Below, piece after piece: positions 4,193 to 48,778 of a stretch of 64,000 nt of DNA. Origin of the DNA: Methanosarcina vacuolata Z-761 (GTDB lineage Archaea > Halobacteriota > Methanosarcinia > Methanosarcinales > Methanosarcinaceae); the NCBI RefSeq assembly GCF_000969905.1, contig NZ_CP009520.1, positions 2,728,001-2,792,000 of the forward strand, read 5' to 3'. The translations under genes were made by a program, and so were the position numbers. Position 1 is the first letter of the stretch. Each line of letters begins with the position of its first letter. The notes below the pieces were generated by a model that did not search any database, had not been told where the DNA came from, and was given only the letters and a program-made list of their open reading frames with translations.

Positions 4193-4340
4193 GAGACTCA
4201 GAAGTTGTCTGTTTTGAAGGACATAAGATTGTAAGACTTGAGTTATATGAAAGGTGAGACTCAGAAGTTGTCTGCTTTGAAGGACATAAGATTGTAAGAC
4301 TTGAGTTATATGAAAGGCGAGACTCAGAAGTTGTCTGTTT
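4193..4340. repeat. Tandem repeat, 63-bp unit, 2.3 copies
   Basis: The unit begins gagactcagaagttgtctg and recurs at 4193, 4256 and 4319, with only a few substitutions between copies. Because 63 is a multiple of three, it creates a repetitive minus-strand ORF that I do not take as a gene. The third, partial copy runs straight into the two-hairpin element at 4338. The rest of the 3.85-4.8 kb spacer is AT-rich and shows no gene. Confidence 0.85.
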
Positions 4341-4406
4341 AACATGAAAGTTCTTTCAAGTACTTTCATTTCTTTGTGCGTGTTATTAGAAGAATTTCAC
4401 GTGTGT
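4338..4406 (-). repeat. Two-hairpin dispersed element, copy A (divergent)
   Basis: Read on the minus strand, this copy has a weakened hairpin with outer stem GTG/CAC followed by an 8-bp hairpin ATGAAAGT/ACTTTCAT. Copies B-D have ATG/CAT at the outer stem of the first hairpin. Copies B and D have ATGAAAAT or ATGAAGAT paired with ATTTTCAT at the second. The changes therefore keep pairing. This is the most diverged of the four copies. Confidence 0.6.
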
Positions 4407-15771: not shown

Positions 15772-15904
15772 CCCTTTTTGAAGTTTACCTCACCATTTTT
15801 GAAGTTTACCTCACCATTTTTGAAGTTTACCTCACCATTTTGACGTTCACCTCACCATTTTGACGTTCACCTCACCATTTTGACGTTCACCTCACCATTT
15901 TTTG
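15772..15904. repeat. Tandem repeat, 20/21-bp unit, six copies, two sub-types
   Basis: ctcaccatttttgaagttta (21-bp step) changes midway to ctcaccattttgacgttca (20-bp step): copies at 15789, 15810, 15831, 15851, 15871 and 15891. The array lies in the 660-bp spacer between the kinase and lipoprotein genes. The rest of the spacer is AT-rich. Confidence 0.95.
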
Positions 15905-16095
15905 ACTATTTATCTCGTCATTACCTCAGGTATGAAGATTGTCCTAACGATGTTTTTTCAAACCATCGCTAAACTAATCAGTGAATTGTCATAGAAGGCT
16001 TAAATTTGATAGGGTGCAGAAAATTAAAAAGAGCATTGTGAGCCATTTTTGTTCCGTACTTTCATGCTAATCAATGTACTGTGCGCCAGATCGTA

Positions 16096-16742: not shown

Positions 16743-17020
16743 TAATGATAAATCTGAACTCTATACTTTTCATTGGGGATCGGTTAAGGAATTTTCTTGC
16801 CAAAAAGCTATCAATTTTGCATTAGAAACCGGCCTTAAATTTTCGCATCTTTAAATGAAATCGATAACTGGTTCCACTTTATATCCCATTAGAATATTTG
16901 ACAAATGTTGTGGAAATGGACGCAGTTTGTCACAATCCCTTACTTAACCGAAGACGCATGAATTCAGATTTTCAATCAAGAAATGCAAAAATCGCTATAT
17001 TTTGGAACAGAGTCATCTTA

Positions 17021-17097
17021 TTTAGCATGAAAATACTGCCATCTGCAAGCATTTTCATTGGCTGCGCATGTTATTCGAAGAATATCATTTTCGTTTA
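17021..17097 (-). repeat. Two-hairpin dispersed element, copy B
   Basis: On the minus strand it begins at the stop codon of the HAD gene. Hairpin 1 is ATGATATTC, loop, GAATAACAT. Hairpin 2 is ATGAAAAT...ATTTTCAT. One minus-strand frame reads H-A-Q-P-M-K-M-L-A-D-G-S-I-F-M-L-N-K, as does copy D. The nine differences from copy D all fall at third positions of this frame. Confidence 0.8.
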
Positions 17098-17823
17098 GTG
17101 AAATAAGTCAAGCATATCCGAAAAAGTATCGAGTCTGAAGTCGAAGCACTGATCCTTTTCTTCTCCGGGTCTCCAGTCTCCATAAGAAGCGTAAGCGGTT
17201 CTCAATCCAAGTTTGCGAGCAGGGACCATATCCCTTTTGATGTTGTCTCCCACTACCAGAGTTTCTCCGGGTTTTATCCCGAGCTCCTTAAGCGCGAAAA
17301 GAAAATGTGCCGGATCTGGTTTTTTTGTGCCTGTCGTATCCGCAGCCACGATAAGATCGAAGTAATTAAGAAGCCCGACCCTTGTAAGCCTTGCCAGGGC
17401 ATGATAACTATCGGCATCCGTTATAATCACGAGCTTTAAGCCCAGCTTTTTAAGCTTATCAAGGGTATCCGTTACAGCTGGATAGAGTTCGAGATTTTGC
17501 AGTTTTTCCCGTTCATAGATCTCACAGCACTTCCTGTAGCCCTGAGCTGTAAAAACATTTCTCTCCTGCATGTAGTCTCGAATATTTTCGTGATCTTCAA
17601 AACCGTAAACTCCTCTCAGGAAGTATCTGAAAAGTACAGAAGGTTCTTCCGTAATATCTCCCTTCCAGATAAAAGAGAGAATCTCCCTGCAAGCTTCCAG
17701 TTTTGCAGCTACGAAATCAAAAAGAGTGTTATCCATATCAAAAAGCACGGCTTTCAGAACTCCGGGATAAACTCGCTCCAGATCTTTCTGAATTATATTC
17801 ATGTTCTTCTCAACTTCTTCCAT
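17095..17823 (-). CDS. HAD-superfamily hydrolase (phosphatase)
   Basis: 242 residues with a complete HAD active site: motif I D-M-D-N-T-L-F-D (about 29-36), motif II I-I-T-D-A-D, the conserved Lys in G-T-K-K-P-D-P, and motif IV V-V-G-D-N-I-K-R-D. The cap domain is of the small helical type between motifs I and II, as in the TIGR02253-like archaeal group. It removes phosphate from a small metabolite, identity unknown. ATG 17823 is used; an internal Met at residue 8 is an alternative. The stop codon merges with the two-hairpin element (copy B). Confidence 0.85.
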   Translation of the reverse strand: MEEVEKNMNIIQKDLERVYPGVLKAVLFDMDNTLFDFVAAKLEACREILSFIWKGDITEEPSVLFRYFLRGVYGFEDHENIRDYMQERNVFTAQGYRKCCEIYEREKLQNLELYPAVTDTLDKLKKLGLKLVIITDADSYHALARLTRVGLLNYFDLIVAADTTGTKKPDPAHFLFALKELGIKPGETLVVGDNIKRDMVPARKLGLRTAYASYGDWRPGEEKDQCFDFRLDTFSDMLDLFH

Positions 17824-19954: not shown

Positions 19955-20084
19955 GTTTTCCCCCATTCAAATCATGTGTTTTATAATAAATGCTTTATAA
20001 TTGATATTGAGGTTTTATAATAATTACTGCTAGATTCTGAACATAATTCTCGATGGTCAATTTGTATCTGATTGGTATTAATAT

Positions 20085-20655
20085 TTGAATAACGTATGTT
20101 TAATTATGGGAAAAAGAGGTCCAAAACCACAATTCTTTGACGTTGCCTGTCCAAACAAAAACTGCAAACTCTATGGTCTGACTAACCAGGGCAATATTAC
20201 TGGGAATGGAACTTACATAAGTCGTGGAAAGAAAACAAGAAGATATGTTTGCCACAATTGCGGTAAAGTATTCAATGATAACACAGGCACTTTTTATCAT
20301 GATCTTCGCAAAGATGAGCAAACTATTGATCTAGCTCTAAAAATGTCTATGAAAGGAATGAGCATTGAAGGTATTGCCGATGTTTTAGAGGTACAATCTG
20401 CCAGTGTAAAGCGATGGTTAGCTCGTGCAGATGAACAATGTGATAAAGTAAATGAAGTATGATGAAAGACCGGGATGTACCCAGATAGAAATGGACGAAC
20501 TATGGGTAATAATTGAGGGTTTGCCAAAATTAACGAAAAGGCGTTAAAAGCAAAAAAGTCCGATAAGAACACATATATTCTTATTAGAAATTGTAGGGAA
20601 AGCTCTCTGTTTTGTGATGTCCATTGTATCGAATAGCACAAAACAAAGAGCACTT
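20085..20655 (+). pseudogene. Broken IS1-type transposase (InsA-like zinc finger/HTH plus DDE remnant)
   Basis: The first part (ATG 20106 to stop 20462) is intact: an N-terminal zinc ribbon (C-P-N-K-N-C ... Y-V-C-H-N-C) and an HTH (I-E-G-I-A-D-V-L-E-V-Q-S-A-S-V-K-R-W-L), as in IS1-family InsA regions. A frameshift then leads to Q-I-E-M-D-E-L-W, the first catalytic Asp motif of the DDE domain, which soon meets stops. The remainder, to about 20655, is scrambled. No terminal inverted repeats were found with confidence. The element is dead. Confidence 0.75.
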
Positions 20656-48306: not shown

Positions 48307-48616
48307 AGGTTTTCTCCGTAGTCGTTTAGGTACAGATTCGTACTTCGACGTATATAAGTGTTATTTATTTTACATTTAAGGTGTTCGCATCCCATTTATG
48401 TACTTTTGGGAAACAGGTGTTTGAAGAAAAGCTACTTATTAAAAATAGAGCTTGAAAAAAAGAAGACTGCCAGAAGTTGGAATTGAAAGAAGGGAAAACA
48501 GTTAGAAGCAAAAACCGGGAAAAAAGTAAACCGGACAGAAATCGGAACCGAATAAAACAAAAAAGGTCATAATCTCTCAATTCTATAAAAGCTCGATTCT
48601 ACAAATATTCACTTTA

Positions 48617-48699
48617 TATTCTGAGAGGTTCGCTTGATATTCTGAGAATCTCACTTGATATTCTGAGAGGTTCGCTTGATATTCTGAGAATTTCACTTG
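48617..48699. repeat. Tandem repeat, 21-bp unit, four copies (42-bp higher order)
   Basis: atattctgaga recurs at 48617, 48638, 48659 and 48680; alternate copies read ggttcgcttg and atctcacttg, so the true unit is 42 bp. The array ends at two-hairpin copy D. Confidence 0.92.
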
Positions 48700-48778
48700 T
48701 TTAGCATGAAAATGCTGCCATCCGCAAGCATCTTCATTGGTTGTGCATGTTATTCAAAGAATATCATGTTTGTTTAAG
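48700..48778 (-). repeat. Two-hairpin dispersed element, copy D
   Basis: On the minus strand it begins about 44 bases after the thiDN stop. It shows the same two hairpins as copy B and the same frame H-A-Q-P-M-K-M-L-A-D-G-S-I-F-M-L-N-K, closed here by TGA. Differences from copy B keep both the pairing and the encoded residues of this segment. Confidence 0.8.

What the first reader, a model, noticed from the sequence alone, without database searches (positions are those of the whole stretch)
17021..17097. Dispersed two-hairpin element with compensatory changes, placed 3' of minus-strand genes (copies at 4338, 17021, 20657, 48700)
Four copies of about 75 bp. Read on the minus strand each can form two hairpins: ATGATATTC/GAATAACAT (outer ATG/CAT becomes GTG/CAC in copy A) and ATGAAAAT/ATTTTCAT (ATGAAAGT/ACTTTCAT in copies A and C). 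The stem changes are paired, the mark of a selected RNA fold. Three copies start 0, about 105 and about 44 bases after the stop of a minus-strand gene (HAD, DUF1699, thiDN), in sense orientation. They could be a 3' UTR element, a family of small RNAs or a mobile structured repeat. I know of no described family like this.
Basis: partly seen in the sequence, partly recalled or inferred. Interest (0 to 1): 0.8.

Follow-up and report, generated by a model that had tools for sequence, protein, structure and literature searches.

The report
Miniature transposon of an RNA-guided element
The four repeats are tiny, gene-less leftovers of an IS110-type jumping element whose guide ("bridge") RNA tells it where to insert, scattered in over 100 copies in this methane-producing archaeon and in many relatives; they are mobile DNA, not a 3' RNA control element.

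Summary
The four copies are real, but they are joined transposon ends, not a 3'-UTR RNA. A covariance model finds about 114 copies in this Methanosarcina genome, on both strands, and copies in 33 of 59 relatives. Each full-length copy is the left end plus right end of an IS110-family element (416-aa recombinase, homologous to IS621) with the middle deleted: a 65-71 bp MITE flanked by AA cores. Intact elements begin and end with the same sequences in unrelated flanks; a 106-bp form in another family keeps both private ends of its parent. Orthologous sites lack copies B and D. The parents carry a structured left-end RNA whose two guide segments match the genomic insertion sites (0/5000 permutations each; six control assignments fail), so they are bridge-RNA elements. 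The "compensatory" changes are mostly single events or co-varying subterminal repeats; hairpin 1 is broken in a third of copies. There is no preference for 3' ends or orientation. The own genome keeps only broken recombinases plus recombinase-free bridge-RNA cassettes, one degenerate one in this window (15.9-16.07 kb). Mobilisation in trans by recombinase plus bridge RNA is inferred, not shown. I found no earlier report of an IS110 MITE in the open literature.

The parts
17024..17094 (-). Copy B: 77-type MITE (left end with hairpin 1 + right end), AC...CATGCT, flanked by AA cores at 17095-17096 and 17022-17023
   Evidence: CM hit 101 bits; orthologous sites in G002 and G016 read TTTCACT-AA-AATATCGG without it
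17095..17096 (-). Left core AA = last two bases of the TAA stop of the minus-strand ORF 17095-17823
4341..4406 (-). Copy A: 72-type MITE
   Evidence: CM hit 69 bits
20660..20724 (-). Copy C: 71/72-type MITE
   Evidence: CM hit 80 bits; no copy within 260 bp downstream of the orthologous gene in G028 and G029
48703..48773 (-). Copy D: 77-type MITE
   Evidence: CM hit 103 bits; empty site CCATCTT-AA-AATCAAGTG in G029 and CCATCTT-AA-AATTAAGTG in G028
15908..16056 (+). Degenerate bridge-RNA region of a recombinase-free IS110 derivative
   Evidence: CM R3, 56.6 bits, E 6.9e-12; sequence
16057..16070 (+). Right end of that derivative, ACTTTCATGCT-AA, same right end as the MITEs; its left end is replaced by a minisatellite

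Best explanation
The element is a miniature (65-71 bp), internally deleted, non-autonomous derivative (MITE) of an IS110-family, bridge-RNA-guided transposon of Methanosarcinales. It keeps the extreme left end (hairpin 1, spacer, ATGAAAGT) and the right end (ACTTTCATGCY), each next to an AA core dinucleotide. Shown by sequence: shared ends, internal deletion, insertion at an AA core with 2-nt duplication, absence at orthologous sites, and a parental left-end RNA whose guides match the target sites. Inferred: recombinase plus bridge RNA made elsewhere excise or circularise the MITE, the donor-binding loop reads its RE-AA-LE junction as donor, and the target-binding loop places it at A/T-rich ...AA... 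sites, which explains its mostly intergenic, orientation-neutral distribution. In this genome the recombinases are broken, so the copies are probably relics now.
For: IS boundaries in intact copies are AA|ACrnAYATGAWATTC...TTTCATGCYAA| with unrelated flanks, including identical copies in G002. The 106-bp derivative L082 and the G056 MITE L070 carry the private ends of the G056 IS. A ladder runs from the 1.5-kb IS through ~300-bp bridge-RNA derivatives to 72/77 bp. Empty sites for D and B. Insertions into minisatellites (L204, L216) give the 2-nt AA duplication. Guide-target permutation tests 0/5000 for the left and for the right target, six other assignments not significant. The donor guide GGATGC[C/T/A]AA agrees with the right end CATGC[C/T/A]AA at the variable base in most IS types. 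The bridge RNA folds at z = -4.3 with an A-U/G-C switch in the outer stem. Recombinase: PF01548 + PF02371, IS621 structure 8wt6 at E 1.4e-11. MITE insertion sites have the same AA core and A/T-rich context, TYAYA(C/G)A-AA-ATAA. Tandem copies, some of mixed type, share one AA core. In IS621 a bridge RNA in trans with a 22-bp donor suffices (PMC11208160).
Against: No experiment shows movement in trans. Own-genome recombinases are broken, and no intact IS with the exact 77-type right end (CTTGCAGATGGCAGCATTTTCATG) was found. Donor guide and right end disagree in L184 and L219 and partly in L185. A 65-71 bp circle would be a very tight donor. The order of left and right guides is the reverse of IS621.
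Confidence: 0.9

Rival explanations
1. REP-like resident repeat into which IS110 elements insert, as IS621 does into REP elements; the IS would only interrupt hairpin 2.
For: IS110 elements are known to target REPs (PMC11208160); hairpin-2 arms lie at the two ends of the IS.
Against: Hairpin 1 is identical, with private substitutions, within each IS subfamily (G008 CTTGG, G002 CCCAGAGAATG) and begins exactly where unrelated flanks end. Target guides match the sequence outside hairpin 1, not the hairpin-2 loop.
Confidence: 0.03
2. PATE/REP-type element moved by an IS200/IS605 Y1 transposase (RAYT).
For: Small hairpin-bearing repeat, no long terminal inverted repeats, high copy number; Y1 transposases exist in some relatives.
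Against: No Y1 transposase in the own genome; only 3 scattered co-occurrences with Y1 loci; the ends belong to IS110 elements.
Confidence: 0.02
3. Selected RNA element in 3' UTRs or a small-RNA family.
For: Hairpin 2 is kept in most copies (93% of cells paired); copies C and D fold better than shuffles.
Against: No 3'-end or sense preference, hairpin 1 broken in a third, copies absent at orthologous sites, no Rfam match.
Confidence: 0.04

Closest known systems
IS110 family, IS621 (bridge-RNA recombinase)
   Same: DEDD + Transposase_20 recombinase, noncoding left end encoding a two-loop RNA, dinucleotide core duplicated, guides pair with the bottom-left and top-right target strands
   Different: core is AA rather than CT; the right guide lies on the 5' side and the left guide on the 3' side of both loops, the reverse of IS621; subterminal repeats ATGAAAGT/ACTTTCAT; archaeal
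MITEs of archaeal IS elements (Kamoun et al. 2013, PMC3852290)
   Same: short, ORF-less, only the ends of the parent kept, high copy number, Methanosarcina hosts
   Different: the 18 MITEs tabulated there come from other IS families (none IS110) and are 89 bp or longer; here the parent has no terminal inverted repeats and uses a guide RNA
REP/BIME and PATE elements (IS200/IS605, RAYT)
   Same: dispersed, intergenic, hairpin-bearing, tandem copies
   Different: the parent is IS110, not a Y1 element; no RAYT in this genome

Membership tests
MITE | both ends homologous to those of an autonomous IS, interior deleted | tested here: met
MITE | no ORF, many dispersed copies | tested here: met
   65-71 bp; 123 matches in own genome, 34 of 60 genomes searched
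MITE | absent from orthologous sites | tested here: met
   copies B and D
MITE | moved in trans by the parent's enzyme | not testable with these tools
   inferred from shared core, target context and shared ends
MITE | terminal inverted repeats (strict sense of the name) | tested here: not met
   no inverted repeat at the extreme ends; subterminal CATGAAA/TTTCATG only, as in the IS110 parent. So it is a MITE in the broad sense: a miniature internally deleted IS
IS110 family (parent element) | DEDD (PF01548) and Transposase_20 (PF02371) domains | tested here: met
   IS621 homology
IS110 family (parent element) | bridge RNA in the left end with target- and donor-binding loops | tested here: met
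   fold, outer-stem pair switch, guide-target permutation tests; RNA expression not testable
IS110 family (parent element) | circular intermediate, core dinucleotide | tested here: inconclusive
   AA core duplicated (L204, L216); circle not testable
IS200/IS605-RAYT REP | associated Y1 transposase | tested here: not met
   none in G000
3' UTR RNA element or sRNA family | consistent sense 3' placement | tested here: not met

The most novel reading that the evidence does not exclude
A distributed RNA-guided transposition system: separate recombinase copies, recombinase-free bridge-RNA cassettes and donor-only MITEs act in trans, so guide RNAs with different target loops send one MITE family to different sites. 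One cassette type (G000:C2:1255987 and 1058091) carries a left-guide segment CATGCT-AA identical to the MITE right end, which would direct insertion next to existing copies and build the tandem arrays.
Probability: 0.25. Interest if true: 0.85.

Novelty: new variant of a known kind. Interest (0 to 1): 0.58.

Why it matters
If the trans mechanism holds, these are MITEs spread by RNA-guided recombination: the guide sits in one element and the cargo in another. They give natural donors of about 70 bp, hundreds of recorded insertion sites and several guide variants in genetically tractable methanogens, so bridge-RNA rules (guide order, AA core, minimal donor) become directly testable outside bacteria. 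They also explain a common intergenic repeat that could be mistaken for regulatory RNA.

Tried and rejected
Y1-transposase/PATE origin: dropped. IS110 inserting into a resident REP: dropped after the IS boundaries were read. Rfam: no match in the window. IS621 guide order (left target on the 5' side, right target on the 3' side): p = 0.32 and 0.98, rejected. Model R2 was built with a shifted structure by my mistake and not used; R3 replaced it. Literature searches for an IS110 MITE or a Methanosarcina family like this found none in the open library; most subscription papers and ISfinder itself could not be checked. Empty site of copy A was not tested.

Full report
Observation. The four window copies are real: a covariance model (R1) scores them 69-103 bits. 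In the whole genome (4.56 Mb, 2 contigs) R1 finds 123 matches at E <= 1, 114 of them at E <= 0.01, on both strands; the weakest include left ends of longer derivatives. Among the 60 genomes searched (own included), 34 have copies: nearly all Methanosarcina, two other genera of the family (one with at least 79 matches) and two genera of another family of the order. Two size classes exist, 76-78 and 70-72 bp as hit by the model. Some copies lie head to tail sharing one AA, including pairs of mixed size class, so these are separate insertions rather than simple duplications.

What it is. Some own-genome copies run from hairpin 1 into a longer element, and one (G000:C2:784466) runs into an IS110-family recombinase gene. 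Intact relatives were collected from about a dozen genomes. All begin AA|ACrnAYATGAWATTCTTyGAATAACATGC...ATGAAAGT and end ...ACTTTCATGCYAA|, in unrelated flanks. Hairpin 1 is therefore the left end of the IS and TTTCATGC the right end; the small repeat is the two ends joined. The clearest case is outside the genus: L082 (G044, 106 bp) and L070 (G056, 70 bp) carry the private right end of the G056 IS...AGGGTACTTTCATGCTAA, and L082 also its private left end...GACATGCTCAAAAAATGAAAGTACCC. Hairpin 2 forms because the left-end ATGAAAGT and right-end ACTTTCAT, 1.5 kb apart in the IS, become neighbours.

Insertion. Copy D is missing from G028 and G029, whose sequence reads through one AA: CCATCTT-AA-AATCAAGTG in G029. 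Copy B is missing from G002 and G016, which read TTTCACT-AA-AATATCGG; the right flank of B differs from theirs, so this case is less clean. In B the AA core is the end of the TAA stop codon, so the stop is preserved. Two IS insertions into minisatellites (L204, L216) show the same 2-nt AA duplication.

Bridge RNA. The parental left end encodes a structured RNA (z = -4.3) with an outer stem that switches A-U/G-C (GGACAG/CTGTCC versus GGGCAG/CTGCCC) and two stem-loops with internal loops. Across 34 IS insertions with 11 guide types, the left target matches the 3' side of loop 1 on the same strand and the right target matches the reverse complement of its 5' side. No guide shuffle in 5000 reached the observed mean for either side, and six alternative assignments were not significant (a fixed-register test agrees). 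The 3' side of loop 2, GGATGCNAA, agrees with the right end CATGCNAA at the variable base in most types; L184 and L219 disagree, and related elements are not independent. The strand rule is that of IS621, but the left and right guides stand in the opposite order along the RNA. The recombinase has PF01548 and PF02371 and matches the IS621 structure entry at E 1.4e-11.

Own genome. Only broken recombinases were found (G000:C2 near 783-784 kb, 1987 kb and 3636 kb). The R3 model finds 17 bridge-RNA-like regions. At least four lie in ~300-bp recombinase-free derivatives with both MITE ends; one degenerate one is in this window at 15908-16070. MITE sites show the AA core and an A/T-rich consensus TYAYA(C/G)A-AA-ATAA, like the IS sites.

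RNA-element hypothesis. Gene context of 100 intergenic copies is neutral: 31 sense/sense, 24 anti/anti, 20 convergent, 25 divergent (simple codon-score gene caller). Hairpin 1 is broken in about a third of copies and GTG/CAC occurs in copy A only. No Rfam family matches the window.

What is inferred. Movement in trans by recombinase plus bridge RNA is not shown. It rests on shared ends, shared core and target context, and on the IS621 result that a bridge RNA in trans with a 22-bp donor is enough (PMC11208160).

Novelty. The kinds are known (MITE; IS110 with bridge RNA). I found no report of an IS110-derived MITE in the open literature searched; the newly described archaeal MITEs tabulated for Methanosarcina come from other families (PMC3852290).

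Noticed in passing
window 15776-16070: Minisatellite (TTTGAAGTTTACCTCACCAT / TTTGACGTTCACCTCACCAT) running into a degenerate bridge-RNA derivative with the MITE right end; the repeat unit resembles part of the IS left end.
   Followed up: partly
G000:C2:1255987 (L168) and 1058091 (L158): Recombinase-free bridge-RNA cassettes whose left-guide segment reads CATGCT-AA-ACGAA, the same as the MITE right-end/left-end junction; might direct tandem insertion.
   Followed up: partly
IS left ends, alignment A5 (L181-L223): Order of left and right guides in both loops is the reverse of IS621.
   Followed up: partly
G031 (same family, other genus): At least 79 MITE matches but no IS110 recombinase found; may be assembly loss or a relic population.
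   Followed up: no
window 16769-16965: A ~195-bp dispersed repeat next to copy B, matching dozens of places in relatives at about 82% identity.
   Followed up: no
window 20052-20514: A ~460-bp repeat present in 10 or more copies in G019 and in other relatives; unidentified.
   Followed up: no
window 48610-48698: Minisatellite of units like GTGAAATTCTCAGAATATCAA directly downstream of copy D, also present without the MITE in G028 and G029.
   Followed up: partly
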